Below are positions 22,111 through 36,569 of a stretch of DNA of 64,000 bases, piece after piece. The notes under the pieces are model-generated. The model was given only the letters and a program-made list of their open reading frames with translations, was not told the origin of the DNA and made no database searches. Each line of letters opens with the position of its first letter. Position 1 is the stretch's first letter. This DNA is from Rhodanobacter soli (GTDB lineage: Bacteria > Pseudomonadota > Gammaproteobacteria > Xanthomonadales > Rhodanobacteraceae): contig NZ_JBEPSD010000003.1 of NCBI RefSeq assembly GCF_040548735.1, positions 248,001 to 312,000 of the forward strand, in the 5' to 3' direction. Both the position numbers and the translations under genes were made by a program.

Positions 22111-22360
22111 GATGCGACCCTCCCATGCAGGGCGTGGCCTCGTGGCATGAACGGCGCCGCGCGAGGCCGCGCGTTGGCGGCTGACGATGGCGGGCCGTCA
22201 TGGTCGTCTTGCACCTGCGCAGGGCGTGGCGTGCGTCGGGCAACGGCGGTCATGGCGGAGAGACGGCGCGTGGCACCGTCCGCCTAGCCTTGAGCGAACC
22301 ACCGGTGCGGTCAAGCTGCAGTGCGGGGAACCGGCGTCGTGCCGCGGCGGTCTCAGTGAA

Positions 22361-23416
22361 ATGCGTCGCGCCCCCTTCCGCCGCCGTCCGACGCGGGGCG
22401 GAGGTTCAAGCGCCATCGGCCATCCTGTTCGCCGTCACCCTCCGCGAGGCACCGTCATCGTCCATTCGCAGCAGCTTGCCCGGCATCGCCCACCGCCGGA
22501 CCCGGAACCCGGCCAGTTGCCGGGTCGCGGCCTGAGTCCGCTGGACGGCGCGGCGCGGGCGCTGCTGCGGCAACGGCGCTGGCGCGAGCCACAGCACGAG
22601 CGGCGCCAGCGCTGGCTGGCGCTGGTGGTGGCCGGCTTGCTGCATGCGCTGTTCGTGCTGGTGATCTGGCAGCAGATGCAGCCGCCGACGGTCCGGACCA
22701 CGGTGCGCACGCAAGCGGACGACGTGCTGCAGGTGCGCTTCATCACGCGCGCACCGGACACCGCGGCCGCACCGCCACCGCCGGCCACGCCAGTGCCGCC
22801 GAGGCCCCGCGTGCCGTCCCGTCCGCACGAGCCGCCCGCGAAGAACGCGATGACCTTGCAGGTGCCCACGCCGGCACCGGCCGCGCCGCGCCTGTATGAC
22901 GAGCACGGCCAGCCGTTGCTGCCCGCGGCCGCTGCCAGCGCGCCCACGCCCGACTACGTGCAGCATCTGCCGCAGGGCGACGCGCGGATCATGCAGCACC
23001 GCAGCCCGGTCACCTATCAGGCCACGCGCTTCGAGAAGGACTGGAACAGCAACAGCAATGCGATCGACAGCGCGCTGCAGAAGCTGGTGGACAAGACCAC
23101 GGTGAAGAAGACCATCCGCCTGCCCGGCGGCGTGCGCATCCACTGCGGTGTTTCGCTCGCCATGCTGGCCGGCGGCTGCGGCGGCGACCCGCCGCCACCG
23201 CCTTCGGCCAAGGACGGCGACGAGCGCCTCAGCATGGCGCCGGCGAAGCCGCTGGCGGGCGGCACGCATGCGCCGCCGAAGCCCAGCGAGAAGGCGTGCA
23301 TCGCGATGTATCGCGCCGGCAAACCGCTGGCATGGGGCTGCCCGGTCGACACGCCGAATCGCGCGGTCGACGCCGAACTGCGCGAACGCGCCGCGGGAGC
23401 CGCCAGGCAACACTAA
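22361..23416 (+). CDS. proline-rich single-pass membrane protein, paralogue 1
   Basis: About 351 residues from the ATG at 22361; the start is uncertain because no good ribosome site is visible. One membrane span lies at about residues 86-104 after an Arg-rich cytoplasmic stretch. A proline/alanine-rich periplasmic linker follows, then a C-terminal domain containing YVQHLPQGDARIMQHRSPVTYQATRFEKDW. The layout is that of TonB/TolA-like energy transducers, but the TonB C-terminal fold is not recognisable. The C-terminal domain is shared with the next gene (positions 24900-25200), so the two are tandem paralogues 29 bases apart. Function unknown. Confidence 0.6.
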   Translation: MRRAPFRRRPTRGGGSSAIGHPVRRHPPRGTVIVHSQQLARHRPPPDPEPGQLPGRGLSPLDGAARALLRQRRWREPQHERRQRWLALVVAGLLHALFVLVIWQQMQPPTVRTTVRTQADDVLQVRFITRAPDTAAAPPPPATPVPPRPRVPSRPHEPPAKNAMTLQVPTPAPAAPRLYDEHGQPLLPAAAASAPTPDYVQHLPQGDARIMQHRSPVTYQATRFEKDWNSNSNAIDSALQKLVDKTTVKKTIRLPGGVRIHCGVSLAMLAGGCGGDPPPPPSAKDGDERLSMAPAKPLAGGTHAPPKPSEKACIAMYRAGKPLAWGCPVDTPNRAVDAELRERAAGAARQH

Positions 23417-25416: not shown

Positions 25417-25820
25417 GGCACGGCGAGGCGGCTGGTTTCTCGCCATGTCTGCGGGACGATATGGTTGCCTTCAAGGCGTGAGAGACAGGGCGTCGCCGGG
25501 CGAGTGGGGGCAGATCATCGTGTCCGACGTTCACCGAGTTTCGCCGGCATGCGCCCTTCCAATGCACGGACGGTGGCGCCTTAAACGCATGCATGCATCC
25601 GATCCAGCAACCGCGGCGTTTTCGCCCCTGGTACACCCGCACTTTCGCCTGTGTAACTCATACACCCCCAAAAGTGTCGGATAACACCGGCAGCCTGCAT
25701 CCGCATTCGCGATGACGCTGCAGTGCAAGCGCATGATCTGCTGCAGAAATTCGCAGCTTGAACGGTCAGGAGCGGAACTGCATACTCGGCGCAACACCCC
25801 ACTTTTGGGGTCTACTAAGC
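25417..25820. other. gene-poor left boundary of the cassette array
   Basis: About 400 bases between the last chromosomal gene and the first cassette. No convincing gene on either strand and no recognisable integrase remnant. It holds small inverted repeats: GTGTA/TACAC at 25651-25665, and CCCCAAAAGTG (25666-25676) pairing with CACTTTTGGGG (25800-25810). It ends with GTTAGAA at 25821, the first cassette boundary, so an attI-like site may lie here. Confidence 0.4.
25666..25810. repeat. 11-bp inverted repeats bounding a 145-bp segment at the array edge
   Basis: CCCCAAAAGTG at 25666-25676 is the exact reverse complement of CACTTTTGGGG at 25800-25810. The segment between has no gene. It ends 10 bases before the first G/TTAG boundary. 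Could be a mini-element, an attI-like folded site or a remnant. Confidence 0.4.
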
Positions 25821-25831
25821 GTTAGAACTCA

Positions 25832-26122
25832 ATGGCCGCTTCGCGCAAAATTGTTCTTCATTCACTGCACGGCTATCGCCCGGAACTCGATGCCGTCGTG
25901 ACGCAATGGATCCATGAGCGCGTCGGCTATGTTGGGGTTGTTGGCGTTGATGCATCAAGGATCGAGGACATCATCGATGATCTGTGTGTTGGGGATGGCT
26001 CAAACTCATACTTCATGCTCACAGCGTCCCACGGCCCAGACGAGACACTTCAAGACGCTATCTTTCTTGCAGAGCAAATTTCAGGTGAGCTCGCCGGCGA
26101 TGTACACGTCGTTGAGTTCTAA
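25832..26122 (+). CDS. cassette 1: hypothetical protein
   Basis: 96 residues, probably soluble (IVLHSLHGYRPELDAVVTQW, VGVVGVDASRIEDIIDDLCV, YFMLTASHGPDETLQD). No family recognised with certainty. The ATG lies 5 bases after the GTTAGAA boundary. The stop TAA is part of the core of attC 1. Confidence 0.7.
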   Translation: MAASRKIVLHSLHGYRPELDAVVTQWIHERVGYVGVVGVDASRIEDIIDDLCVGDGSNSYFMLTASHGPDETLQDAIFLAEQISGELAGDVHVVEF

Positions 26123-26172
26123 CATTTCATTCAAGCGGACGGCTACGCCGCCGCTTAATTCCAGCGTTAGGC
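26117..26172 (+). repeat. attC site 1
   Basis: 56 bp from TTCTAAC to GTTAGGC. The hairpin arm reads AAGCGGACGG, lacking the extra G seen in most sites of this array. Confidence 0.9.
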
Positions 26173-26183
26173 ATCATCTAGCC

Positions 26184-26429
26184 ATGCAAGACGAAATCGC
26201 TAATAGCGTTGTTGCCGTCGTCAAGTTCGTCGCGTACTACATCATCTGGTCATTCGTTCTGTTCAACCTGGGTCGCATGTCGCTGCTTCTGGTTACGCTT
26301 GGTCAGTATCCGCGGGGCCTTGATGCTCAACGTCACGCCAACCAAATTTCGCTCGTTGGCACTCTTGTGCTCGTCTTGGCTTGGTCGGCTATTGCCATCT
26401 ACAACAACACTCTTGGCGTCCCTGCCTAA
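26184..26429 (+). CDS. cassette 2: small membrane protein
   Basis: 81 residues with two predicted membrane helices (VVAVVKFVAYYIIWSFVLFN and SLVGTLVLVLAWSAIAIYN) joined by a loop LGQYPRGLDAQRHANQ. No family recognised. Start ATG 12 bases after the attC boundary; the stop TAA lies in the next attC core. Confidence 0.65.
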   Translation: MQDEIANSVVAVVKFVAYYIIWSFVLFNLGRMSLLLVTLGQYPRGLDAQRHANQISLVGTLVLVLAWSAIAIYNNTLGVPA

Positions 26430-26480
26430 CATCTCATTCGAGGCGGACGGCTACGCCGCCGCTCAATTCCAGCGTTAGAC
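26424..26480 (+). repeat. attC site 2
   Basis: 57 bp from GCCTAAC to GTTAGAC, with CGAGGCGG in the left arm instead of CAAGGCGG. Confidence 0.92.
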
Positions 26481-26498
26481 ATCACAGGGGGCACTGAC

Positions 26499-26735
26499 AT
26501 GGACATGTTTTCCGGCGTACTTGGTCTGATCGTTATTCTCTTTCTGTTTGTACTCGCTGTGCTGTGGTTTTTCCTCCCGTTCGCGATCTTCGGAACCAAG
26601 GACAAACTCGCAGCCTTGATCGTAGAATCCAAGAAGGCGAACGTGGAGCTTGCCCGCGTCGTTGCAGAGCTTGCAGCCACGCGCGCTGAAATGGCACAAA
26701 CGCGTCCCCTTCAAAATGGTTCGGGCAGTGTCTAA
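26499..26735 (+). CDS. cassette 3: membrane-anchored coiled-coil protein
   Basis: 78 residues. One or two tight hydrophobic segments (LIVILFLFVLAVLWFFLPFA) followed by a charged helix with heptad character (VESKKANVELARVVAELAAT). No family recognised. A GGGGGCA ribosome-like site precedes the ATG. The stop lies in the next attC core. Confidence 0.65.
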   Translation: MDMFSGVLGLIVILFLFVLAVLWFFLPFAIFGTKDKLAALIVESKKANVELARVVAELAATRAEMAQTRPLQNGSGSV

Positions 26736-26786
26736 CATCTCATTCGAGGCGGACGGCTACGCCGCCGCTCAATTCCAGCGTTAGTG
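26730..26786 (+). repeat. attC site 3
   Basis: 57 bp from GTCTAAC to GTTAGTG; left arm CGAGGCGG as in site 2. Confidence 0.92.
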
Positions 26787-26789
26787 CCC

Positions 26790-27161
26790 ATGAAAACTCT
26801 TCTACTCGCCCTCACAATCGTTGCTTCGGCTTTGCCGAGCTATGCGTTGGCATGTAGTCCGGCTTATCCAGACGAGTCGATGGCACATGAATCAAAGGGT
26901 CTTTTCGTTGGCACAGCTGTCAGCTCTCGCTGGTCCGATGAGCGCCCGCACCTAAACGTGAGGGTCAAAGTCACCGAGGTTCTTCGCGGAAAAGCTTCTG
27001 GTGAGATTTTCGCCATCTCGCCCTGTGCTCTTCCTATCAACGATGGCGAGCGAGTCGTTGTCGTCCAATATGAGGACGGTAAATATGACTACGATCACGT
27101 GGTGTATCCCGCTGACATGGCCGAAAAAGTATTCCGGGCGGGCCTGCGCGCTGGGCACTAA
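26790..27161 (+). CDS. cassette 4: secreted Cys-containing protein (TIMP/netrin-like?)
   Basis: 123 residues. A signal peptide (KTLLLALTIVASALPSYALA) is followed at once by CSPAYPDE. The mature part has LFVGTAVSSRW, VRVKVTEVLRGKASGEIF, a second Cys in ISPCALP, and DGERVVVVQYEDG. A leading Cys followed by a beta-rich block with TEVLRG is reminiscent of TIMP/netrin-like domains. That is a fold guess only. A lipoprotein is unlikely because the residues before Cys (YALA) also fit signal peptidase I. The stop lies in the next attC core. Confidence 0.65.
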   Translation: MKTLLLALTIVASALPSYALACSPAYPDESMAHESKGLFVGTAVSSRWSDERPHLNVRVKVTEVLRGKASGEIFAISPCALPINDGERVVVVQYEDGKYDYDHVVYPADMAEKVFRAGLRAGH

Positions 27162-27212
27162 CAACTCGTTCAAGGCGGACGGCTACGCCGCCGCTTAACT
27201 CTAGCGTTAGAC
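27156..27212 (+). repeat. attC site 4
   Basis: 57 bp ending in GTTAGAC. The left core is CACTAAC, deviating from RYYYAAC at the first two positions. Confidence 0.9.
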
Positions 27213-27225
27213 ACAGGGGAATAAC

Positions 27226-27606
27226 GTGCGTCACTTAGCCAAATTGCTCGTAGCTGCTGCTGCCTTCTGCGTCCTCGCAGCCTCCGCCGAGGAAGTGACG
27301 GTCACAAAAGAACTTCAGGCCGCAATGCAAGATATCGCAGTCCATTCCAAGGTCGTGACCGTGGACGGCGCAGGAGCCACTCCAGAAAACTTTCACCAGG
27401 ACTTCGATCCCGCAACTCTTCAAATCGTAATGCTGGCCAAGCCTTCAGACGGGGCTGCTCAAGTTTCCAGCGATGGCGAGGTCATCTTTCTACAAAAGGA
27501 CACTTCGGAGAAAGAGCAGCAGTCACTGTTTGCAACGGCCTTTTATCTCAAGGCCAAAGCCCGCGAGGCCACTTCGCAACCCGCTGGCGCACACAGCTCA
27601 CCGTAG
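27226..27606 (+). CDS. cassette 5: secreted hypothetical protein
   Basis: 126 residues from a GTG preceded by AGGGGAATAAC, a good ribosome site. A signal peptide (HLAKLLVAAAAFCVLAASAEE) predicts export. The mature part (VTKELQAAMQDIAVHSKVVT, LQIVMLAKPSDGAAQVSSDG) has no recognised family. Stop TAG just before attC 5. Confidence 0.65.
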   Translation: MRHLAKLLVAAAAFCVLAASAEEVTVTKELQAAMQDIAVHSKVVTVDGAGATPENFHQDFDPATLQIVMLAKPSDGAAQVSSDGEVIFLQKDTSEKEQQSLFATAFYLKAKAREATSQPAGAHSSP

Positions 27607-27607
27607 T

Positions 27608-27664
27608 GTCTAACATCTCGTTCAAGGCGGACGGCTACGCCGCCGCTTAACTCCAGCGTTAGAC
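27608..27664 (+). repeat. attC site 5
   Basis: 57 bp from GTCTAAC to GTTAGAC; loop TAC. Confidence 0.93.
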
Positions 27665-27665
27665 C

Positions 27666-27992
27666 ATGAAGACCAAAGCAATCCTTGACCCTGAGACTAT
27701 TGCGGCGTGGCAGCTAGCTGCCGCAGGCTCTCAGCAAAAATTCAAATTGGTATTCGCCTCTCTCTTCATGGCTCTCCTTTGTCTTGGCATCGGAATTTTT
27801 CTTCACAACATTTACATTTTTGGCCTCTTCTTCGTCTTGGCGTTCATCGCGCTGGCAGCCAATGCAGCAATTCGCCTCAACCTAGCGTGCCCTCACTGCG
27901 CTCAGTGCCCCCTAACTCCGTTTGTCTTAAGTTCGCCATCTACCATCGAGTTTTGCCCGCATTGCTTTTACTGGTTAAAGTCACCGTGGTAG
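27666..27992 (+). CDS. cassette 6: two-helix membrane protein with zinc-ribbon-like tail
   Basis: 108 residues. Two adjacent membrane helices (KLVFASLFMALLCLGIGIFL and IYIFGLFFVLAFIALAANAA) are followed by a cytoplasmic tail with CPHCAQC and CPHCFYWLK, a likely zinc-binding ribbon. No family recognised. The ATG is only 2 bases after the GTTAGAC boundary core, so there is no room for a cassette-borne ribosome site. Confidence 0.65.
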   Translation: MKTKAILDPETIAAWQLAAAGSQQKFKLVFASLFMALLCLGIGIFLHNIYIFGLFFVLAFIALAANAAIRLNLACPHCAQCPLTPFVLSSPSTIEFCPHCFYWLKSPW

Positions 27993-28002
27993 GCATCCGG
28001 TC

Positions 28003-28059
28003 GCCTAACCACTCGTTCAAGGCGGACGGCTTCGCCGCCGCTTAACTCCAGCGTTAGGC
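28003..28059 (+). repeat. attC site 6
   Basis: 57 bp from GCCTAAC to GTTAGGC; loop TTC. Confidence 0.93.
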
Positions 28060-28063
28060 CGCT

Positions 28064-28438
28064 ATGAGGCATATTCGAATCATTGAGATTCCTCCTGGTG
28101 AAGCTCCAGAGCGGGTCCGCGCGGCTTGGGTAGGGGTGACCATCCAGCTTGCTGACATCCCAGAGCCACAGCCAAGTATTTGGTCCACGACCGGAGTTCT
28201 AGGCAGGGATCACGGTTTGCTGGCTAGGTTCAAGAATCTCTTTGGCGTACCGGTCGCCGAGCAACCCAACGTGGCCTATGTTGTCGACGTTATCGCTGCC
28301 ATTGAGTCTCTGCGCGCACAATCACCGTCTGCCGCTGCGTGGTGGGAGCGCCACACTCCGCACCTGCTCAAACTGGGCAAAAGGTTCTGTTTTGCCGCGT
28401 CGTGCTCTGAGGAAACCGCACATGGTGACGCGGCCTAA
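28064..28438 (+). CDS. cassette 7: hypothetical protein
   Basis: 124 residues, soluble, no signal peptide (IIEIPPGEAPERVRAAWVGV, YVVDVIAAIESLRAQ, AAAWWERHTPHLLKLGKRFC). No family recognised. The ATG is 4 bases after the attC; the stop TAA is in the next attC core. Confidence 0.6.
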   Translation: MRHIRIIEIPPGEAPERVRAAWVGVTIQLADIPEPQPSIWSTTGVLGRDHGLLARFKNLFGVPVAEQPNVAYVVDVIAAIESLRAQSPSAAAWWERHTPHLLKLGKRFCFAASCSEETAHGDAA

Positions 28439-28489
28439 CATCTCGTTCAAGGCGGACGGCTTCGCCGCCGCTTAACTCCAGCGTTAGAG
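28433..28489 (+). repeat. attC site 7
   Basis: 57 bp from GCCTAAC to GTTAGAG; loop TTC. Confidence 0.93.
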
Positions 28490-28492
28490 CGC

Positions 28493-28783
28493 ATGAAGCA
28501 GACTACGGCGGCAAATCTGGCTTTGATTCTGGTTGTGGCCGGTTGGCTGCTAGCCTTCTATGGCGTCACTTCGCAACTTGGCGACCCATCACCCTCCGCC
28601 CCACGGGCACAAATCGAAGCTGCTCGGCATCTGTCACTTACAATACTGGGCGTCGGTGTCGTGTGCATACTGGCCGCCCTTTGTCTTTCCGGTTTCAGTT
28701 TTACTGCAGCCAAAGTTCGTGCCAGTGTTTGCGCTGCGCTAGGCTTTCTGCCTGCAATCGCTGTTATCTGGAGCATGCTGTGA
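28493..28783 (+). CDS. cassette 8: membrane protein
   Basis: 96 residues with three predicted membrane helices (ANLALILVVAGWLLAFYGV, LTILGVGVVCILAALCLSGF, CAALGFLPAIAVIWSML). No family recognised. The ATG is 3 bases after the attC. Confidence 0.6.
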   Translation: MKQTTAANLALILVVAGWLLAFYGVTSQLGDPSPSAPRAQIEAARHLSLTILGVGVVCILAALCLSGFSFTAAKVRASVCAALGFLPAIAVIWSML

Positions 28784-28794
28784 GTGGCAGTGCG

Positions 28795-28851
28795 CTCTAA
28801 CTACTCGTTCAAGGCGGACGGCTTCGCCGCCGCTTAACTCAAGCGTTAGGC
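28795..28851 (+). repeat. attC site 8
   Basis: 57 bp from CTCTAAC to GTTAGGC; loop TTC. Confidence 0.92.
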
Positions 28852-28871
28852 TCATACTAAATCGTACGACA

Positions 28872-29159
28872 ATGGAAAAAGACACCGACCGCAGCATGTC
28901 ACTCTTTATTGCCATCATCACCAAGATAGGCTCAGCCATATTTATGGCAGCGGCGCCATTGATATTTCTAGGAATCCTTTACCAAGGCGGGCTTGGTACG
29001 GTTCCCGTCTACAATCGTGGCGGGCAGGTAATTTTCTACGTCAACAATGTCGTTGCAGCTCTCATCTTTTCTTGGCTTTGGTTCTCAATCAGTGCGCTGA
29101 TGTTCTCCTTCTCAAAGAAGGCCGTGGCTAAATTTCGCAAGCAGCGTGATGCGGCCTAA
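28872..29159 (+). CDS. cassette 9: membrane protein
   Basis: 95 residues, two predicted helices (IGSAIFMAAAPLIFLGIL and VVAALIFSWLWFSISALMF) and a basic C-terminal tail (SKKAVAKFRKQRD). No family recognised. Stop TAA in the attC core. Confidence 0.6.
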   Translation: MEKDTDRSMSLFIAIITKIGSAIFMAAAPLIFLGILYQGGLGTVPVYNRGGQVIFYVNNVVAALIFSWLWFSISALMFSFSKKAVAKFRKQRDAA

Positions 29160-29210
29160 CAGTTCGTTCAAGGCGGACGGCTTCGCCGCCGCTTAACTCC
29201 AGCGTTAGGC
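29154..29210 (+). repeat. attC site 9
   Basis: 57 bp from GCCTAAC to GTTAGGC; loop TTC. Confidence 0.93.
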
Positions 29211-29217
29211 CGCAGTC

Positions 29218-29457
29218 ATGCCTTTAAAGAATCCTGTCATTTTTACGATTCTGGTGCTTGCTGTGTTGCTTGCCGCAGGCATCGTCACGTATATCTATGG
29301 CTTGCCCCTGCTGCAAGGATCTCAGGTGGGTTGCCAGATCGGCGGAGGCATCAAATCATTTGGTTGTTCTACCTCGTTCGGATTCTTCATGGTCTGGGTT
29401 TTAATTGTGGTCGGCTTTGCAATTGGTGCAATCTGGACAAAATTTGGTCAACAATAA
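29218..29457 (+). CDS. cassette 10: membrane protein
   Basis: 79 residues, two predicted helices (FTILVLAVLLAAGIVTYIYG and FFMVWVLIVVGFAIGAIW) separated by a Gly/Cys loop (VGCQIGGGIKSFGCS) that could carry a disulfide. No family recognised. About 34 bases separate the stop from attC 10. Confidence 0.6.
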   Translation: MPLKNPVIFTILVLAVLLAAGIVTYIYGLPLLQGSQVGCQIGGGIKSFGCSTSFGFFMVWVLIVVGFAIGAIWTKFGQQ

Positions 29458-29491
29458 ACACGTGTTCGGCCTCACCGATTCTAGGGTTGCG

Positions 29492-29547
29492 GCCTAACAT
29501 CTCATTCAAGCGGACGGCTGCGCCGCCGCTTAATTCAAGCGTTAGGG
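29492..29547 (+). repeat. attC site 10
   Basis: 56 bp from GCCTAAC to GTTAGGG; AAGCGGACGG arm without the extra G; loop TGC. Confidence 0.9.
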
Positions 29548-29553
29548 CCAACC

Positions 29554-29871
29554 ATGCTCCGTCATGTTCTCGCTGCAGCAAATACGCTCTTCGCAGCCAT
29601 TGCAGCGTTCATGATCTATGTTGTTATGCCGTATAGCCGCCAGCTTTTCTGTGAGTCTTGGCGCATGGAATGCGAGCCGCTATCTAACATTGCTGTCGCC
29701 GCTTGGGCGGCCCTGCCAATCGCTGCAGTAGTTATGTCGCTCTGGGCTGGCTACCGCATCCGTTCGCATCACGAGCGTGTTAGTTTGGGGCTCTTCCTGT
29801 GGTATCCGATCTTCTTCACTGTCACAGCGTTTTTTCTCTTCGCAAACCGGGTCCCAGCCTCTGGGCCCTAA
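29554..29871 (+). CDS. cassette 11: membrane protein
   Basis: 105 residues with three predicted helices (AANTLFAAIAAFMIYVVM, IAVAAWAALPIAAVVMSLWA, LFLWYPIFFTVTAFFLFA) and a loop with two Cys (LFCESWRMECEP). No family recognised. Stop TAA in the next attC core. Confidence 0.6.
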   Translation: MLRHVLAAANTLFAAIAAFMIYVVMPYSRQLFCESWRMECEPLSNIAVAAWAALPIAAVVMSLWAGYRIRSHHERVSLGLFLWYPIFFTVTAFFLFANRVPASGP

Positions 29872-29922
29872 CATTTCGTTCAAGGCGGACGGCTTCGCCG
29901 CCGCTTAACTCTAGCGTTAGGC
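29866..29922 (+). repeat. attC site 11
   Basis: 57 bp from CCCTAAC to GTTAGGC; loop TTC. Confidence 0.92.
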
Positions 29923-29938
29923 CGCAAGGAGCCCGCTC

Positions 29939-30191
29939 GTGCGATACCGAATCGAACAGGAGTCTGGGCATGACACTTCGGGCAACTACACCTTTCGCAT
30001 CTACAGTAATGACCGACTCGTCGCTCGGTACTGGCACGACTATCGCGGTGACGAGCACGGCATCGAGTTCGTCAACGGTAAAAAAACAAGCCTGTCCCGG
30101 TCAAGCGGCTAGCTTCATCACAGGTGGCGGGCCACAGCCACTGGTGCTCTCGGAGCAGGCTGCGTCTTACCTCGACCGGGAGTTGGCGTAA
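29939..30191 (+). pseudogene. cassette 12: hypothetical protein, frameshifted at an A7 tract
   Basis: A GTG at 29939 has AAGGA 8 bases upstream and opens MRYRIEQESGHDTSGNYTF, which reaches a TAG at 30110-30112 after 57 residues. The neighbouring frame continues coherently (FITGGGPQPLVLSEQAASYL) to a TAA at 30189-30191. The two frames join if one A is dropped from the A7 run at 30080-30086, giving about 83 residues. Either a real inactivating indel, a sequencing error in the homopolymer, or slippage during expression. No family recognised. Confidence 0.55.
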
Positions 30192-30219
30192 ATGCTTAGG
30201 GGTAGTCCCGCGTCGTGCG

Positions 30220-30276
30220 GCCTAACATTTCGTTCAAGACGGACGGCTACGCCGCCGCTTAACTCCAGCGTTAGGT
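30220..30276 (+). repeat. attC site 12
   Basis: 57 bp from GCCTAAC to GTTAGGT; left arm CAAGACGG differs from the usual CAAGGCGG; loop TAC. Confidence 0.92.
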
Positions 30277-30281
30277 CCCAG

Positions 30282-30527
30282 ATGGGCGCACTGTCGAGAC
30301 TTCGAAAATGGGCCAATCGAGATGATGGTCATTTCTACCAAATCGGCAACGAGTCTATCGATGTCCTCACGGTCGTCGGCGCGCTCGTTCTCATCGGTGC
30401 ACTTATCCTTTGGCAGCTTCACTCTCAGGTAGGTATTAGTAGTGTTTGGGCCATCGCGGTTGGCATTGTTGGCCCGGCTTTGCTCGTCGCAGGTGGCACG
30501 TCGGGCAGCAACGGCAGTGGCACCTAA
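30282..30527 (+). CDS. cassette 13: small membrane protein
   Basis: 81 residues with two predicted helices (VLTVVGALVLIGALILWQL and SSVWAIAVGIVGPALLVAGG) after a charged N-terminus (LSRLRKWANRDDGHFY). No family recognised. Stop TAA in the attC core. Confidence 0.6.
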   Translation: MGALSRLRKWANRDDGHFYQIGNESIDVLTVVGALVLIGALILWQLHSQVGISSVWAIAVGIVGPALLVAGGTSGSNGSGT

Positions 30528-30578
30528 CATCTCGTTCAAGGCGGACGGCTTCGCCGCCGCTTAACTCAAGCGTTAGAC
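30522..30578 (+). repeat. attC site 13
   Basis: 57 bp from ACCTAAC to GTTAGAC; loop TTC. Confidence 0.93.
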
Positions 30579-30583
30579 AGCTA

Positions 30584-30946
30584 ATGAAACAGATGCTCAA
30601 TTTTGCTTTTGCAACAGCGCTTCTAGCTTTGGTCGGCTGCACCGCTAAAGCTCCAGATCCGCGCGTGCAAACGCTGGAAAGGACGCTGGGGCTGCTTAAC
30701 CTCAAGAACCCGGCATCCGATGCGATGAAGAATTTCACCAAAGGTGACCTACGTTTGATTGGCGTCAACGGCTTCTCTTGTTCTCTTCCCGGCAGGCCTT
30801 CAGTGGCTCAAGAACAGCTGGCACAGCAAAACGGGATGTACTGTTTGGACGGAACTTCTGACGTTGGCCTTCGCGACCTTAATGAGCAGGCCGCCGTGTA
30901 TTCTGCTCGCTACAACGCGGCGCTCGTTAAGCTCATACACCGGTAG
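30584..30946 (+). CDS. cassette 14: lipoprotein
   Basis: 120 residues. A signal peptide ends with the lipobox LVGC (FAFATALLALVGCTA), predicting a lipoprotein. The mature part is alpha-helical and has two more Cys (FSCSLPG, MYCLDG). No family recognised. The ATG is 5 bases after the attC. Confidence 0.65.
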   Translation: MKQMLNFAFATALLALVGCTAKAPDPRVQTLERTLGLLNLKNPASDAMKNFTKGDLRLIGVNGFSCSLPGRPSVAQEQLAQQNGMYCLDGTSDVGLRDLNEQAAVYSARYNAALVKLIHR

Positions 30947-30948
30947 CT

Positions 30949-31005
30949 GTCTAACATTTCGTTCAAGGCGGACGGCTCCGCCGCCGCTCAATTCCAGCGT
31001 TAGGT
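30949..31005 (+). repeat. attC site 14
   Basis: 57 bp from GTCTAAC to GTTAGGT; loop TCC, right arm CTCAATTC. Confidence 0.92.
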
Positions 31006-31011
31006 GCCGCA

Positions 31012-31293
31012 ATGGAGATGCAACGCGAACTTGCAGCGGCAATCGAAGAGTTTGATGCCTGGGATCGCCCTTGGGAGTTCTATTCATCTGTGTCTTCGTC
31101 GTTGCGCCCGGCTGCTCGCTCCGAGCTCGAACGCATCTGGGCTACCGCAACAGACTCAGTTGGCTGGTCAACCTGTGAAGATCTTGCCCAAGGCTCCTCA
31201 CTTGCAGAGACCCGCCTCTCACAGAGCTTTCCGTGGCTCTCAGCAAAGGCACGGAAGCAGTTGGCTAGTGGTGCCGCTTACCAGTGGCGGTAG
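31012..31293 (+). CDS. cassette 15: hypothetical protein
   Basis: 93 residues, soluble and Trp-rich (FDAWDRPWEFYSSVSSSL, RIWATATDSVGWSTCEDL, SFPWLSAKARKQL). No family recognised. The ATG is 6 bases after the attC boundary. Confidence 0.6.
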   Translation: MEMQRELAAAIEEFDAWDRPWEFYSSVSSSLRPAARSELERIWATATDSVGWSTCEDLAQGSSLAETRLSQSFPWLSAKARKQLASGAAYQWR

Positions 31294-31297
31294 CGTC

Positions 31298-31357
31298 ACC
31301 TAACAACTCGTCCAAGCGGACGCGCGTACCGCGCGCCGCTTAACTTCAGCGTTAGGC
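31298..31357 (+). repeat. attC site 15 (variant stem)
   Basis: 60 bp from ACCTAAC to GTTAGGC. The stem is CGGACGCGCG / CGCGCGCCG around TAC, different in sequence from the others but still complementary. Confidence 0.88.
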
Positions 31358-31660
31358 GGCAGAGCATTTTTTCTTCGCAGTGCTTCGCGCGTTTCACGTC
31401 TTGGCTTCGTGTTGGCAAAGCGGCGTCTGCTGTTCCTGGCTGGCCTGCGTTGTTGTCTTTCGTGCGCTTGGTCGTCCGTCGTGCCTTGCGCGCGTTGGCG
31501 CACATCGCATCTTCATACTTTTTCGTGCGCGCGGTTCACGGCAGCGTGGCGTTTGTCGTCAGCGGTTCGTTCGTCGCACGCAGGCCACAAGTTGCGCGGC
31601 ATTGCCGGGCTTTCAAAGCAGCGCTATCGTGTTCGCACATGACGGTGTAACCGTGCTGCC
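31358..31660 (+). ncRNA. cassette 16: no convincing ORF; possible RNA or promoter cassette
   Basis: About 300 bases between attC 15 and attC 16 without a frame that has a plausible start and composition. The open frames present are Arg/Ser/Cys-rich and look non-coding. The strand is rich in CGT and GTCGTC runs. A Xanthomonas campestris integron cassette is known to encode a small RNA (sRNA-Xcc1), so an RNA here is plausible but unproven. Confidence 0.3.
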
Positions 31661-31717
31661 GTCTAACATCTCGTTCAAGGCGGACGGCTGCGCCGCCGCT
31701 TAACTCCAGCGTTAGCT
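31661..31717 (+). repeat. attC site 16
   Basis: 57 bp from GTCTAAC to GTTAGCT; loop TGC. Confidence 0.93.
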
Positions 31718-31736
31718 CAGCGGGGAAGGTCACGGC

Positions 31737-32063
31737 ATGCGAACGACCGGCGCTTTGTGGATTGTTACGATTGCTTTGGCTATCGCTCTAATTCCGTCAA
31801 TACCATATGGCTACTACTCTGTAATGCGTTGGCTTGTGTGCGCTTCATGCGCCTGGCTCTCTCTCGCCTCGTTTCGCAGCGAGCGAGAGGAGTGGGCTTG
31901 GTGCTGGGGAGTGATCGCAGGCATCTACAATCCAATCTTCCCGGTGCACGCCACTAGGGAAATTTGGTCGTTTGTCAATGTTGCAGCCATCGTGCTCGCA
32001 GCTTGGTATACCTTCAAAGCGTCTCGGCCAAACAGGGGGAAGCAAGATGGGGGAGAAGCTTGA
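31737..32063 (+). CDS. cassette 17, gene 1: DUF6804-like membrane protein
   Basis: 108 residues with about four predicted helices. GYYSVMRWLVCASCAWLSLA, WAWCWGVIAGIYNPIFPVH and TREIWSFVNVAAIVLAAW match my memory of small DUF6804-type membrane proteins (pattern GYY..LRW, then FNP..P..L.R..W). Function unknown. GGGGAAGG precedes the ATG. Overlaps the next gene by 17 bases in another frame. Confidence 0.65.
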   Translation: MRTTGALWIVTIALAIALIPSIPYGYYSVMRWLVCASCAWLSLASFRSEREEWAWCWGVIAGIYNPIFPVHATREIWSFVNVAAIVLAAWYTFKASRPNRGKQDGGEA

Positions 32064-32352
32064 GAACACAGCGGGTTGCGTTTTCGCAATCCTATTTTTC
32101 GGGTTCGGCTTGCTACAACTTGGCGCTGGCTGGGCGGGCATTGAGCATTCGTTTGGCTGGGGCTGGGGGGTTGCGGCAGCGGTTGCTGCAATTGGCTTTC
32201 GCTTTACGTTACCAATCGCTGTGGGAGCTTTCCTCTGCGCAAAAAACATCTGGGGCTGGCATTGGGTCTTCGCAGCACTCTTTGCAGCACCAGGCCTTCT
32301 GTTCATGGTCCCAGCTTTCTTTTCGTCACTTGTGGGCGCAGTGAAACGCTGA
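32047..32352 (+). CDS. cassette 17, gene 2: membrane protein
   Basis: 101 residues, two to three predicted helices (TAGCVFAILFFGFGLLQLGA, WGVAAAVAAIGFRFTLPIAV, WVFAALFAAPGLLFMVPAFF). It starts inside gene 1 of the same cassette, with GGGGGAAGC as ribosome site. No family recognised. The two genes move as one cassette, suggesting linked function. Confidence 0.6.
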   Translation: MGEKLENTAGCVFAILFFGFGLLQLGAGWAGIEHSFGWGWGVAAAVAAIGFRFTLPIAVGAFLCAKNIWGWHWVFAALFAAPGLLFMVPAFFSSLVGAVKR

Positions 32353-32408
32353 GCTAACAGTTCGTTCAAGGCGGACGGCTACGCCGCCGCTTAACTCAAG
32401 CGTTAGGT
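32352..32408 (+). repeat. attC site 17
   Basis: 57 bp from AGCTAAC to GTTAGGT; loop TAC. Confidence 0.92.
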
Positions 32409-32416
32409 TTTCCTCT

Positions 32417-32776
32417 ATGACAGATCTTCGCGGCCTACTGCAGCAGATAAAGGATGGCAAGAAGTCCTTTGGACCAGCTAGCAACAGCCCTGAAGACATG
32501 GCGGTATTCCAAGACATAGCGAAGGCCCTTGCATTCGCGAACGATGAGGGCCTCTTAGAAGGTTTCGCTTCGCACAAGGAAAGCTACACGGGCAATCGCT
32601 GGTATGTCGTGGTCATGGTAAAAAGCGGTCTCAGCTACCAAGGTCAGCAGTACTTGGAGCAGCCCGCTAAACCACCAGCACCAGCCCCGGGAGATATCGT
32701 GCAAATCAAGCCAAATTTTTATGGCATTAGCATCGACTTCAACGCACTGTGGCGTAGGCTGAGGGGCAGAACCTAA
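32417..32776 (+). CDS. cassette 18: hypothetical protein
   Basis: 119 residues, soluble (TDLRGLLQQIKDGKKSFGP, DMAVFQDIAKALAFANDEGL, VVMVKSGLSYQGQQYLEQP). The helical centre with GLSYQGQQYL recalls a winged-helix wing, a loose impression. No family recognised. Stop TAA in the next attC core. Confidence 0.6.
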   Translation: MTDLRGLLQQIKDGKKSFGPASNSPEDMAVFQDIAKALAFANDEGLLEGFASHKESYTGNRWYVVVMVKSGLSYQGQQYLEQPAKPPAPAPGDIVQIKPNFYGISIDFNALWRRLRGRT

Positions 32777-32828
32777 CATCTCGTCCAAGCGGACGGCGTA
32801 CCGCTGCCGCTTAACTCCAGCGTTAGGC
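32771..32828 (+). repeat. attC site 18 (variant stem)
   Basis: 58 bp from ACCTAAC to GTTAGGC; stem CGGACGGCG / CGCTGCCG with TAC loop. Confidence 0.9.
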
Positions 32829-32840
32829 CCCGGAGGGGAA

Positions 32841-33218
32841 ATGAAGCGCAACTGGGACATCATTCGTGAAATCCTCACGCACCTTGAGGAGCTGCCGAAC
32901 ACAGATTCCATGCTTGAGCTTTCAGATTTCCCGGAAGACCGCGCCTTCGAGTACGCGTATCACGTTGAGCTCCTCATTGAGGCAGGACTGGTTGAGGGAC
33001 AAATGGCCGGAACCTTGGGAGGTGGGCCGGCAGATTTCTTTGCCAGGCGCCTCACGTGGCCTGGCCACGAGTTCCTAGACTCCATTCGATCTGACACTGT
33101 CTGGAGCAAAACCAAAAGGACATTTACATCAAAAGGTATCGACATGACGTTTGACTTGGTCAAGTCGGTCGCATCTGAGATCTCGGTGGCCCTTATCCGC
33201 GGGGCAACCGGGGTCTAA
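32841..33218 (+). CDS. cassette 19: DUF2513 domain protein
   Basis: 125 residues. The sequence MKRNWDIIREILTHLEEL, YHVELLIEAGLVEG and RLTWPGHEFLDSIRSDTVW follows the DUF2513 pattern. This family resembles a winged-helix and is common in prophages and accessory regions; function unknown. A GGAGGGGAA ribosome site lies directly upstream. Stop TAA in the attC core. Confidence 0.8.
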   Translation: MKRNWDIIREILTHLEELPNTDSMLELSDFPEDRAFEYAYHVELLIEAGLVEGQMAGTLGGGPADFFARRLTWPGHEFLDSIRSDTVWSKTKRTFTSKGIDMTFDLVKSVASEISVALIRGATGV

Positions 33219-33269
33219 CATCTCGTTCAAGGCGGACGGCTTCGCCGCCGCTTAACTCCAGCGTTAGCC
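33213..33269 (+). repeat. attC site 19
   Basis: 57 bp from GTCTAAC to GTTAGCC; loop TTC. Confidence 0.93.
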
Positions 33270-33283
33270 CCACTAGGGCATTT

Positions 33284-33847
33284 ATGACCGACCCAACAAT
33301 CGACCAAGTCGTTCAAGCAGGGGCAGCCTCGTGCCGGAGTCTGTCGCGTTGCAACAACTTCTTTGTCTTTGAGCATTCGGATAGTTGGCTCGGGTGGGAG
33401 AACTGGCTCACGGTGGACATTGTTCGTCGCCTAAACCACAGAGCAGTCGTCCGCTTTGGTGCATACTCAAACGGATCAACGCGCTCCGATATTTTCTTAA
33501 AGACGAAACAAAAAATTGCCGTTGAGATTAAGGTTAACTATATAGATGACAACGAGCTTGATAAATGGATCGGCAAAAAACATGGGCTTCCTAAGCGCGT
33601 CGCGGACGACCTCAAAAAGCTCACTAAGTCTATTCGTAATGCAGATCGTCTTATGCTAATGGCAACAGCGCTTGAGTCGAGTCGTCGCAGTAGCGAGTAT
33701 CGCGCTCTAATCGACGAAGACCTCTCAAGCAACTGGCCTAAATGGACAAGAGAATGGGCCAAGTGCGGAAATATTCTCCTTCTGAGCTTAGTTATCCCGC
33801 ACGGAGCTAACAATTCGTTCAAGGCGGACGCCTCCGGCGCCGCTTAA
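33284..33847 (+). CDS. cassette 20: PD-(D/E)XK nuclease-like protein, reading through attC
   Basis: 187 residues, among the longest cassette products. GSTRSDIFLKTKQ followed by IAVEIKVNYIDD gives a D ... ExK arrangement typical of PD-(D/E)XK nucleases, between strand-like segments. A charged helical region (KRVADDLKKLTKSIRNADRL) follows. The frame does not stop at the attC core; it runs through the site and ends at TAA 33845-33847, so the last 13 residues (ANNSFKADASGAA) are attC-encoded. Nuclease assignment is a motif-level inference. Confidence 0.6.
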   Translation: MTDPTIDQVVQAGAASCRSLSRCNNFFVFEHSDSWLGWENWLTVDIVRRLNHRAVVRFGAYSNGSTRSDIFLKTKQKIAVEIKVNYIDDNELDKWIGKKHGLPKRVADDLKKLTKSIRNADRLMLMATALESSRRSSEYRALIDEDLSSNWPKWTREWAKCGNILLLSLVIPHGANNSFKADASGAA

Positions 33848-33861
33848 CTCCGGCGTTAGAC
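33805..33861 (+). repeat. attC site 20 (variant stem)
   Basis: 57 bp from AGCTAAC to GTTAGAC; stem CGGACGCC / GGCGCCG with TCC loop, complementary although changed in sequence. Its left part is translated as the end of cassette 20. Confidence 0.9.
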
Positions 33862-33873
33862 CGCACACAAACT

Positions 33874-34356
33874 ATGCCTGCGACTCAGACATGCACTAGC
33901 TGTGGTAAGACGCTCCCAATGAGCCGGGAGTTCTTTGGCAACACGCCAAGTGGCGGGTTCCGACGCAAGTGCAGGGACTGCATGGCCGCACATACACGAG
34001 CCCACTCGATCGAAAATCCGGAGCAAAAGCGAGCCAGAGCACTTCTCCGTAAAGCTCGCGAGAATGCTGCCGGACTGCGTTATTTCGACCATGACATTGC
34101 TTCCTTGCGTAAAGCCCAGGAAGACCGGTGCGCCTACTGTAATTCTGAATTGCTTGGAGCAGGTCAGGTTGACCACATGACGCCCGTCGCGCAAGGTGGT
34201 GCAAATGCACTTGAGAATTTGGTGTTAGCCTGTTTTCAGTGCAACACTGAGAAGCATGCCAAAACTGCTCATGAGTACTTTTGTTGGCGTTCTAGTCACG
34301 ACCTGCCCGTATATGGCCATGCATATGCATACATTCTACTTTACGGACGTAAGTAG
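33874..34356 (+). CDS. cassette 21: HNH endonuclease with extra zinc ribbon
   Basis: 160 residues. An N-terminal zinc ribbon (CTSCGKTLP ... CRDCMAAH, about residues 7-40) is followed by a basic helix. The HNH core then follows: CAYCNSELLGAGQVDHMTPV, GGANALENLVLACFQCN. It should cut DNA; specificity unknown. It lies directly after the PD-(D/E)XK-like cassette. Its attC is broken by an IS element, so this cassette probably can no longer be excised. Confidence 0.8.
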   Translation: MPATQTCTSCGKTLPMSREFFGNTPSGGFRRKCRDCMAAHTRAHSIENPEQKRARALLRKARENAAGLRYFDHDIASLRKAQEDRCAYCNSELLGAGQVDHMTPVAQGGANALENLVLACFQCNTEKHAKTAHEYFCWRSSHDLPVYGHAYAYILLYGRK

Positions 34357-34360
34357 TGCG

Positions 34361-34387
34361 ATCTAACAATTCGTTCAAGGCGGACGG
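34361..34387 (+). repeat. attC site 21, left half (split by IS)
   Basis: ATCTAAC and the left stem arm to CGGACGG, then the IS begins. The last three bases CGG (34385-34387) are the target duplication. Confidence 0.88.
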
Positions 34388-34440
34388 GATAGTTCCTCCG
34401 CTTTAGTGGACACCCTGAACTAACCTTTCAGGAGTGTTCC

Positions 34441-34797
34441 ATGCCCAAGCCAGGTCCCCGAACCACCACTCGCTACAGCGACGAATTCAAGGCCACGGCC
34501 GTGCGTTTGAGCACGCTTCCTGGCGTGCTCGTACAGGATGTCGCGGCGTCGCTTTACATCCATCCCTTCATGCTGTCTCGTTGGCGCAAACAGGTGCGCG
34601 AGGGCGAGATCATGACGAAGGGTACGACGGTCGATCCGGTGGTAGCCGCCGAGCTGAAAGAGTTGCGGCGGGTCAAGAAGGCCTACGAGCAACTGAAGAT
34701 TGAGCATGATGTTCTAAAAAAAGCGATCGCGTTCACTTCCGCTCGAAAAGCGAACGCTTTGCCTTCATCGAGCAACAGCAGGAAGCCGTCGCGGTGA
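34441..34797 (+). CDS. IS3-family transposase OrfA
   Basis: 118 residues in frame to its own stop. The N-terminal helix-turn-helix ([40 protein letters not shown]) is the transposase-8 domain that binds the IS ends. It is followed by the leucine-zipper-like [20 protein letters not shown]. Translation can slip -1 at the A7 run 34716-34722 to enter the orfB frame; residues after LKKA in this frame are probably not in the fusion product. Confidence 0.85.
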
Positions 34798-35596
34798 GAG
34801 TCCTTTGCCGCCTTTTCGGCGTCAGCGCCAGCGGCTACTACGCCTGGCGCGCTCGCCCGGCCAGCGAACGCGCACAGGGGGATGCACGCCTGATCGCCCG
34901 GGTCCGCCAGGTGCACCGCGACAGTCAGGAAACCTATGGCAGCCCGCGCGTGCACGCCGAACTGCGCCAACAAGGCGAGAACGTGGGTCGCCGCCGGATC
35001 GAGCGGTTGATGCGTGAGCATGCCGTGCCTGCTCGGCCACGCTGTATCGGCGCACGCCGGGGCTCGATCGATTCTTTGCCAGCGTCGACAACCAGGTTCA
35101 TGCGATGACCGTGGATCGGATCGATCAGGTGTGGGTGACGGATGTGACGTATCTGAAAGTCTCTGGCACGTGGCGTTATCTGGCCACGGTGATGGATCGG
35201 CATTCACGTCGCCTGCTCGGATGGGCGCTGGGCACGGAGAAGTCGGCGCAGCTGACCGGCCGCGCACTGCGTGCGGCTGTGCGCCACCGAAAGCCACCGC
35301 CGGGCACGGTGGTGCACAGCGATCGCGGCGTGGAGTTGTCCTCACGGTTCAAGCAGGCGTTGGCAAGCGCTGCGCTGGTGCAGAGCGTCAACCGGCCACG
35401 CCGCATGACCGACAACGCGCACATGGAGTCGTGGAACAAGTCGATGAAGGCGGACATGTATCACCGCCAGTCCTTCACCAGCGAACGGACCCTGCGCTCG
35501 GCCCTGCGCAGCTACATCGACTTTTACAATAAGCACCGCTTGCACTCCGCCCTGGGCTACCGTTCTCCGGTAGAGTTCGAAGCTCAAGGCGTCTGA
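34719..35596 (+). pseudogene. IS3-family transposase OrfB, frameshifted
   Basis: The orfB frame begins after the A7 slip site ([43 protein letters not shown]) and is lost near 35040, after EHAVPARPR. The coding sense resumes one frame away ([20 protein letters not shown], then [12 protein letters not shown]) and runs to a TGA at 35596. A single base appears missing around 35040. The DDE residues are in the second part ([27 protein letters not shown]). The break separates the helical N-terminus from the catalytic core. Confidence 0.8.
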
Positions 35597-35629
35597 TCCG
35601 TCGGTGTCCACTTTTGCGTAGGAACTCTC

Positions 35630-35662
35630 CGGCTTCGCCGCCGCTTAACTCAAGCGTTAGAC
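35630..35662 (+). repeat. attC site 21, right half
   Basis: Begins with the duplicated CGG, then CTTCGCCGCCGCTTAAC and GTTAGAC. Together with 34361-34387 it rebuilds a normal TTC-loop attC. Confidence 0.88.
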
Positions 35663-35692
35663 GTCTACACCAACAGAGCCGGGAGATTGCCA

Positions 35693-36100
35693 ATGAGGAA
35701 GCTTCTGGCCCTGATCACGGCAGCTACGGTTTCGGCTTTCACCGGCAACACCCAGGCACAAACATCAGCACCGCATAGCTACTGCTTCCAACCTTGTACG
35801 ACGTCTTTGTCAGGGCGTTTGTCTGTTGAACATGTGCGCATGGACGATCCCAAGATGCACTTCGACGCGTACGTCCTTACCCTGCCCAATCCGATTTCAG
35901 TGCCCGATAGCGGCATGTTTCAGGGAGTGCCTCGCGAGAGTCGTGTGCAACTCGAGTTTGTCCCCCACAACCAGAGGTACTTGGCAGGCCAATGCGTAGT
36001 CGCAACTGGTGAGCTGACTGGACCCGTAACCGCATCTGACATCGGTTCGTTGGTCATGCACGTCCAATCAGTGCATGCGTGCAAAGCCGGCACACTGTAG
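35693..36100 (+). CDS. cassette 22: secreted DUF4431-like protein
   Basis: 135 residues. A signal peptide (KLLALITAATVSAFTGNTQA) precedes the mature part with two Cys (YCFQPCTTSLSGRLS). Later blocks YVLTLPNPISVPDSGMFQG, VQLEFVPHNQRYLAGQCVVA and TGELTGPV fit my memory of DUF4431 (a beta-barrel-like periplasmic domain), with moderate confidence. The ATG at 35693 follows GGGAGATTGCC. Confidence 0.65.
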   Translation: MRKLLALITAATVSAFTGNTQAQTSAPHSYCFQPCTTSLSGRLSVEHVRMDDPKMHFDAYVLTLPNPISVPDSGMFQGVPRESRVQLEFVPHNQRYLAGQCVVATGELTGPVTASDIGSLVMHVQSVHACKAGTL

Positions 36101-36110
36101 GTACCTTCGT

Positions 36111-36167
36111 GTCTAACATTCCGTTCAAGGCGGACGGCTTCGCCGCCGCTCAACTCAAGCGTTAGAC
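36111..36167 (+). repeat. attC site 22 (last recognisable)
   Basis: 57 bp from GTCTAAC to GTTAGAC; loop TTC, right arm CTCAACTC. Confidence 0.93.
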
Positions 36168-36170
36168 GCC

Positions 36171-36569
36171 ATGCAAATCGTCCTCCGCGGCAGAGTGCAG
36201 TCTGGGAAGAATGATGCTTCCCGCTGGCTGGGCCTCTTCAATGAGGCCTACAGCCGCAAGCTTGGTGCAGCCATCTATCCGGGCTCACTGAATCTGGCGC
36301 TGGATCATGCGTTCGATTGGTCCGCTCCTTGTTTCCAACCGCACATGATCCAGTTCCAACGGGGAGAATATGGTGGCGAGCGAGACATAGTCCTGTTGCC
36401 CTGTGTCCTCGCCAACCTCGGTCATCGAAAGGCTTGGCTTTGGAGCACAACGATCGCAGCGAAGAGCCGCCCCGATCCGCACGTCGTAGAAATCATCTGC
36501 GGCGTCAAGCTGCGGGAAGCGTATGCCCTCGGCGATGGAGACTTTGTGCAATTCGAGCTGCCAGCTTAG
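36171..36569 (+). CDS. cassette 23: DUF120-type (CTP-dependent riboflavin kinase-like) protein
   Basis: 132 residues. VLRGRVQSGKNDASRWLG, then AAIYPGSLNLALDH, and HVVEIICGVKLREAYAL with GDGDFVQFEL at the end. This follows the order of archaeal CTP-dependent riboflavin kinase (G.V.SG, yPGTLN, DVIEIIAPVKLRE.L.L.DGD.VEI). The enzyme would phosphorylate riboflavin to FMN. Whether this bacterial cassette form is active is unknown. It starts 3 bases after attC 22 and has no attC behind it, so it marks the array end or has lost its site. Confidence 0.65.
   Translation: MQIVLRGRVQSGKNDASRWLGLFNEAYSRKLGAAIYPGSLNLALDHAFDWSAPCFQPHMIQFQRGEYGGERDIVLLPCVLANLGHRKAWLWSTTIAAKSRPDPHVVEIICGVKLREAYALGDGDFVQFELPA

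What the first reader, a model, noticed from the sequence alone, without database searches (positions are those of the whole stretch)
25821..36569. Integrase-less array of about 22 attC sites and 23 cassettes
Twenty-two sites of 56-60 bp with the same ends (TAAC ... GTTAG) and hairpin core punctuate a 10.7-kb stretch, all in one direction, with small genes between. Neither flank encodes intI, unlike the classical Xanthomonas layout beside ilvD. The flanking genes (proline-rich membrane pair on the left, secreted protein on the right) are ordinary backbone. It is either an array that lost its integrase or a CALIN supplied in trans. It is the main accessory region here and most cassette products are undescribed.
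Basis: partly seen in the sequence, partly recalled or inferred. Interest (0 to 1): 0.85.

Follow-up and report, generated by a model that had tools for sequence, protein, structure and literature searches.

The report
Integron that lost its own integrase
A soil bacterium (Rhodanobacter) carries a row of 23 small mobile genes behind a preserved entry site and the first 24 codons of a deleted recombinase gene; near-identical mobile genes in a second array suggest that recombinases encoded elsewhere in the same genome may still fill it.

Summary
The array is real: 21 intact attC sites plus one split by an insertion sequence, all on the + strand. Window 25590-25825 is 81% identical to the start of a complete integron elsewhere in the genome: 24 codons of intI, the intergenic region and attI. 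So this is an integron that lost nearly all of intI, not a bare attC cluster. The genus is Rhodanobacter, not Xanthomonas. At the same site, after a proline-rich gene, 5 of 20 fetched relatives carry intact intI; one keeps both ends of a deleted intI. The own genome encodes two intact IntI with arrays of near-identical attC on another contig. Three window cassettes are 99.3-100% identical to cassettes of one of these arrays; two are nearly private to this genome. Comparable intI-less attI modules occur in about 14 surroundings in the genus. Where species share one truncated module, the readable first cassettes differ, and attI varies less than the adjoining spacer. Best reading: an eroded integron still served in trans. 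Known kind (CALIN), new variant (attI kept, several platforms per genome). Truncation is shown; service in trans is inferred, not shown.

The parts
20074..22110 (-). EF-G-like GTPase gene, conserved left neighbour used to find the orthologous locus
   Evidence: Pfam EFG_IV, GTP_EFTU and others; matches in 45 of 45 genus genomes, many further hits being paralogues
22436..23416 (+). proline-rich gene 1 (part of open frame 22187-23416; no Pfam hit)
23446..25416 (+). proline-rich gene 2 (Pro2; no Pfam hit), immediate left neighbour; intI follows it directly in 5 of 20 fetched relatives
25590..25661 (-). remnant of intI: first 24 codons, after which the frame ends (MSYTGESAGVPGAKTPRLLDRMHACV*)
   Evidence: tblastn 79% over 24 aa, E 5e-7
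25662..25825 (+). region upstream of intI and attI; core GTTAG at 25821-25825
   Evidence: 25590-25825 aligns at 81% over 240 columns with L007 9846-9611; conserved blocks in an alignment of 24 modules
25758..25786 (+). candidate cassette promoter Pc: TTGAAC, 17 bp, CATACT (8 of 12 to consensus; below the threshold of the promoter scan, which found 0)
   Evidence: inference
25821..26170 (+). cassette 1, 100% identical over 350 bp to a cassette of array B (C1:1563435-1563784)
26166..36165 (+). cassettes 2-22, mostly short ORFs; with cassette 1 they carry 21 intact attC and one split attC
28053..28487 (+). cassette 7, 99.7% identical to a cassette of array B; in the other 44 genus genomes only a 32-bp match (G014)
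29204..29545 (+). cassette 10, 99.3% identical to a cassette of array B; 72-80% copies in five other genomes
34388..35629 (+). insertion sequence (IS3-type by recall) inside an attC, CGG on both sides; second transposase frame is split
   Evidence: HTH_Tnp_1 and rve hits; ends read; frames
36171..36569 (+). last gene, CTP-dep_RFKase (DUF120) family, no attC behind it
   Evidence: PF01982 E 1e-9
   Evidence: matches in 19 of 45 genus genomes, some of them paralogous or partial

Best explanation
The locus is a sedentary chromosomal integron whose intI was deleted down to its first 24 codons, while attI, the region upstream of intI and the cassette array were kept (shown by sequence and by orthologous loci). 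The genome's two intact integrases, IntI-A (C1:2002774) and IntI-B (C1:1569357), sit beside arrays of the same kind of attC and are inferred to excise and insert cassettes here in trans, new cassettes entering at the retained attI. IntI-A is the likelier partner for attI: its own attI region is 81% identical to this one, while IntI-B's gave no blastn match (inferred). A promoter in the retained head would express the first cassettes (inferred, weak).
For: Head: 81% identity over 240 columns to the attI/intI start of integron A; 24 codons of intI. Ancestry: directly after Pro2, 5 of 20 fetched relatives have intact intI, and G030 (L109) has both a 5' and a 3' intI fragment. Integrases: 2 intact in the genome, with the conserved recombinase motifs. 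Exchange: cassettes 1, 7 and 10 are 100, 99.7 and 99.3% identical to array B; beyond the own genome, cassette 1 has one whole-length match, 84%, in G065, cassette 7 only 32 bp in G014. Turnover after loss, at other loci: L205, L206 and L208 share one truncated module and junction but unrelated cassettes, as do L219 and L224. Constraint: in L205-L208 the attI block varies in 10 of 72 columns, the spacer in 35 of 103 (p 0.003).
Against: No recombination was measured. The date of intI loss here is unknown, so cassettes 1, 7 and 10 could have arrived before it. The locus shows decay: an IS in one attC, a last gene without attC. The window cassettes shared at 95% or more are shared with array B, none with A (one A-W pair, 85.9%), although attI resembles A's. 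The turnover and constraint evidence comes from other loci, and several genomes there now hold only broken intI. Across the genus, A-type IntI and intI-less A-type modules do not coincide strictly.
Confidence: 0.7

Rival explanations
1. Static relic: the array stopped recombining when intI was lost and now only decays, as the Xanthomonas paper concludes for X. citri pv. citri (PMC12444791).
For: intI gone; IS inside an attC; last gene lacks attC. In G035, G024, G060 and G002 the same locus is reduced to one cassette or none (L105-L108).
Against: Near-identity of three cassettes with array B; nearly private cassettes 1 and 7; 21 intact attC; attI block conserved in comparable modules.
Confidence: 0.15
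2. Recent loss: the cassettes were exchanged while intI was still present here, and the deletion is young.
For: The 24-codon remnant is still in frame and 79% identical to IntI-A; nothing dates the deletion directly.
Against: The two nearest relatives of the 19 compared (EF-G gene 96.0 and 95.8% identical) also lack intI here, and 42 bp after the Pro2 stop align with one of them, G035, where intI would end. This is weak: 3 of 500 shuffles reach the spacer score, and an unrelated-looking match to L118 does nearly as well (4 of 500).
Confidence: 0.12
3. Secondary-site cluster: cassettes were inserted by an integrase at a non-att genomic site, and there was never an integron here.
For: Integrases can use non-classical attG sites (mentioned in passages).
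Against: attI and intI start are present; complete integrons at the same place in relatives.
Confidence: 0.03

Closest known systems
[quoted passage not shown]
   Same: At least two attC, one orientation, no complete intI nearby; IntegronFinder's rules as read would name it so (the program was not run).
   Different: Keeps attI and the intI start. IntegronFinder 2.0 does not detect attI outside class 1 (passage), so such cases are not separated from bare clusters.
Xanthomonas sedentary integrons with truncated or absent intI at ilvD, and CALINs at conserved positions (PMC12444791; passages, section 11)
   Same: Ancestral chromosomal platform, repeated intI loss, cassette arrays left behind.
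   Different: Other genus and other locus; here the same genome has two intact integrases, and cassettes look exchanged with one of their arrays.
Treponema phagedenis integron remnant (PMC3607928; passages)
   Same: attC sites left after intI loss.
   Different: intI reported lost from that genome and the structure considered static there.
Complete sedentary chromosomal integron
   Same: attI, homogeneous attC, long array of small cassettes.
   Different: intI missing in cis.

Membership tests
CALIN | at least 2 attC sites clustered | tested here: met
   21 intact attC
CALIN | no complete integron-integrase gene nearby | tested here: met
   only 24 codons remain; complete genes on another contig
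Complete sedentary chromosomal integron | intI adjacent and intact | tested here: not met
Complete sedentary chromosomal integron | attI site | tested here: met
   by similarity to the L007 attI region; recombination not tested
Complete sedentary chromosomal integron | cassette promoter Pc | tested here: inconclusive
   hexamers 8 of 12 to consensus; scan found 0 at its threshold
Eroded orthologue of the Pro2-site integron of Rhodanobacter | complete integron at the same site in relatives | tested here: met
   intact intI after Pro2 in 5 of 20 fetched loci
Platform served in trans | intact IntI elsewhere in the genome | tested here: met
   two
Platform served in trans | IntI recombines this attI and attC | not testable with these tools
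   needs a bench assay
Secondary-site (attG) cassette insertion | no attI at the array start | tested here: not met

The most novel reading that the evidence does not exclude
Rhodanobacter runs a distributed integron: one or two integrases per genome serve several attI-bearing platforms without intI at different chromosomal sites. The retained head (about 170-240 bp: attI, the intI upstream region and a short non-coding stretch of intI) is kept by selection as a trans-served entry and expression site, so a share of what databases call CALIN are live platforms.
Probability: 0.45. Interest if true: 0.75.

Novelty: new variant of a known kind. Interest (0 to 1): 0.6.

Why it matters
CALINs are about as numerous as complete integrons in the genomes surveyed by PMC9024848 (2961 against 2760; [quoted passage not shown] If a cluster keeps attI and the genome keeps an integrase, it could still gain and lose genes. 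Detecting attI would help sort live platforms from dead ones, and Rhodanobacter, with intact and truncated versions of the same sites in sister species, makes that testable.

Tried and rejected
Rfam search for attC: 0 hits at gathering thresholds. Promoter scan of 25550-25850: 0 found. Idea that the truncated modules spread as a mobile unit with a fixed end at codon 24: rejected, because among the 20 of 24 scanned loci where the match reaches into intI the ends vary from about codon 4 to codon 38 (3 matches stop before the intI start, L118 had none), and I saw no common motif at the junctions; five of the codon-23-to-25 ends are one orthologous locus (beside a GGDEF gene). Idea that the remnant encodes a kept peptide: rejected, because 3 of 4 orthologues at the GGDEF locus carry an extra base that breaks the intI frame and 2 of 4 lost the ATG, although the DNA there is conserved (12 of 80 columns vary against 35 of 103 in the spacer). 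Homology of the spacer after Pro2 as a date for the loss: only suggestive; of 19 loci compared, shuffles reaching the score were 3 of 500 for L105, 4 for L118 (at non-corresponding positions, so probably chance) and 20 for L110; the other 16 had 67 or more. PADLOC on 10 of the 23 scanned cassette ORFs: only the HNH endonuclease (33874-34353) gave hits, PtuB-like at best 2e-11, perhaps no more than a shared HNH fold. My draft said that L105 holds an attC relic; model R1 does not match it, so that rests on reading the sequence by eye.
Full report
WHAT IS THERE. The window holds 21 intact attC sites and one split by an insertion sequence, all on the + strand, between 26119 and 36165. TAAC-to-GTTAG length is 51-55 bp. 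A pattern taken from them matches 74 times in the own genome and 0 times in the reversed control. With covariance model R1 the own genome has 108 matches, and 43 of 45 searched genomes of the genus have at least one. R1 was built from 52 distinct sites of this window and of arrays A and B, so it serves the census but is no independent test of what the sites are; their place beside two intI genes is.

THE HEAD OF THE ARRAY. tblastn with the complete integrase of locus L007 finds its first 24 codons at 25661-25590 (79% identity, E 5e-7), and blastn aligns 25590-25825 with L007 9846-9611 at 81% over 240 columns. In L007 that stretch is the start of intI, the intergenic region and attI. The window array is therefore headed by an attI and by a truncated intI in the usual divergent layout.

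WHERE WE ARE. The named scan finds the closest relatives of this integrase in Rhodanobacter. The window's own record is unnamed; a 20-row tree of the EF-G-like gene groups it with G035 and G021 (support 99/98; 96.0 and 95.8% identity).

THE SAME SITE IN RELATIVES. I fetched 20 loci around the EF-G-like gene from 20 of the 44 other genus genomes (the rest were not fetched). Directly after Pro2: intact intI in 5 (L112-L116); A-type attI with an intI 5' fragment in 2 (L109, L110), besides the window; attC or cassette relics without an A-type head in 6 (L105, L106, L111, L117, L118, L119; L105 by eye only, L118 keeps a 5' fragment of another intI type); neither intI nor a nearby attC in 6 (L107, L108, L120, L121, L123, L124; L123 has one weak, opposite match 2 kb away); contig end in 1 (L122). 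L109 also keeps an intI 3' fragment, which shows deletion in place. Loci with nothing may be decayed beyond recognition.

TWO INTEGRASES IN THE SAME GENOME. IntI-A (C1:2002774-2003766) and IntI-B (C1:1569357-1570361) are 68% identical to each other, have no stops and carry the conserved motifs around R, H..R and Y (residue roles recalled). The neighbours (a glucan-synthase-like gene for A, an SRAP-like gene for B) are named from recall. Both head long arrays (24 and 37 core sites read). The genome is in 10 contigs, so the distance to the window is unknown.

CASSETTE EXCHANGE. All-against-all comparison of 90 cassettes of arrays A (24), B (37), window W (21, the IS-split pair counted as one) and the C2 array (8) gives, at 95% identity or more over more than 70% of the shorter one, 7 A-B pairs, 3 B-W pairs, 1 B-B pair and no A-W or C-W pair. 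The B-W pairs are cassettes 1 (100%), 7 (99.7%) and 10 (99.3%). Cassette 1 matches from just before the attI core to just past its attC (25818-26171). Cassette 7 has no match in G035 or G021, and cassette 1 none listed there beyond the attC end. Such moves are expected if IntI-A or IntI-B acts on the window array; they would also be expected if intI had been here until recently.

OTHER TRUNCATED MODULES. A search with 25585-25827 hit 26 of 45 genomes. I fetched 20 of the places that looked intI-less; shorter matches and some contig ends were not fetched. With the Pro2 site they lie in about 14 surroundings: 13 groups by comparing the left open frames plus Pro2; some single groups could merge. 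Of 24 loci scanned (these 20, the window, L109, L110, L118), 20 matches reach into intI and stop after about 4 to 38 codons, 3 stop before it, L118 has none. Longer broken intI also exist (G024, G030, G032, G035, G060), so erosion in steps is likely. Two sites are reciprocal: G000 has intact intI beside the glucan-synthase-like gene and a truncated one at Pro2; G013 has the reverse (L220, L115). In G031 the neighbour gene of G000's IntI-B adjoins a degenerate A-type head (L222). For most of the other surroundings I found no intact intI, so it is not shown that each once held a complete integron.

DID CASSETTES TURN OVER AFTER LOSS? L205, L206, L207 and L208 (four species) share the same junction between a GGDEF gene and about codon 24 of intI, so the truncation appears older than their split. 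The first cassettes that can be read (L205, L206, L208; L207 ends at the contig end) are unrelated; so are those of L219 and L224, whose 187-bp modules differ at 2 positions. Among 47 cassettes from 12 loci (two of which yielded none) four pairs matched: two window cassettes with cassettes of L219 and L214, and two pairs within G030; none between these orthologues. A changed first cassette behind an intact attI core points to an integrase acting in trans in the ancestors. Several of these genomes now show only broken or no A-type intI.

IS THE HEAD KEPT? In L205-L208, variable columns are 10 of 72 in the attI block, 12 of 80 in the intI remnant, 33 of 92 between them and 35 of 103 in the spacer outside (Fisher p 0.003 and 0.004 against the spacer). 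Columns are treated as independent, the region borders are mine, and only four related sequences were used. The remnant is conserved as DNA although its frame is broken in three and its ATG lost in two of the four.

CASSETTE CONTENT. I scanned 23 ORFs from 22 cassettes with Pfam (two from cassette 17, none from cassette 16, which has no convincing ORF; in cassettes 2, 3, 6, 12, 15, 17 and 21 I chose an ORF other than the longest). Four have a family at E 0.01: DUF6804, DUF2513, HNH endonuclease and CTP-dep_RFKase; 19 have none.

WHAT IS KNOWN. In PMC12444791 (passages; section 11) most Xanthomonas strains have lost intI activity and about half of genomes carry CALINs elsewhere; CALINs are said to be mobilisable in trans. 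[quoted passage not shown] PMC2426708 (passages) reports nearly a third of intI as pseudogenes and 20% of carriers with more than one. PMC9176274 (passages) lists Rhodanobacteraceae-like IntI among environmental classes. PMC9229058, PMC3607928, PMC12901181 and PMC11023631: passages only. In seven searches no title or abstract start that was listed described integrase-less attI platforms in Rhodanobacter or cassette turnover at them; the library lacks most subscription journals.

VERDICT. Array real; truncated integron shown; service in trans likely but inferred.

Noticed in passing
L039:4150-9311 (own genome C2, about 282149-287310): A further intI-less array whose head is 75-78% identical to the attI/intI start of a different integrase type that is intact in G020 and G031 but was not found intact here.
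   Followed up: partly
L040, L041, L042 (own genome C1:598 kb, C1:882 kb, C2:31 kb): Small attC clusters of 3, 3 and 4 matches, weak ones included; possibly relics or secondary-site insertions.
   Followed up: no
window 34388-35629: Insertion sequence in an attC hairpin with CGG on both sides; its second transposase frame is split.
   Followed up: partly
window 36171-36569: Last gene belongs to the CTP-dependent riboflavin kinase family (PF01982), which I recall as mainly archaeal.
   Followed up: no
window 31351-31715: Cassette 16 has no convincing ORF but an 83% relative in G026 (L214), so it may act as RNA or promoter.
   Followed up: no
L205-L208 module starts: The intI 5' stretch is conserved as DNA although its frame is mostly broken; it contains repeated GTTACACCC / GTAACTCATACACCC motifs and may be a regulatory site.
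   Followed up: partly
own genome C1, arrays A and B: Six cassette bodies are 100% identical between the arrays of the two intact integrons, a seventh 99.2%.
   Followed up: partly
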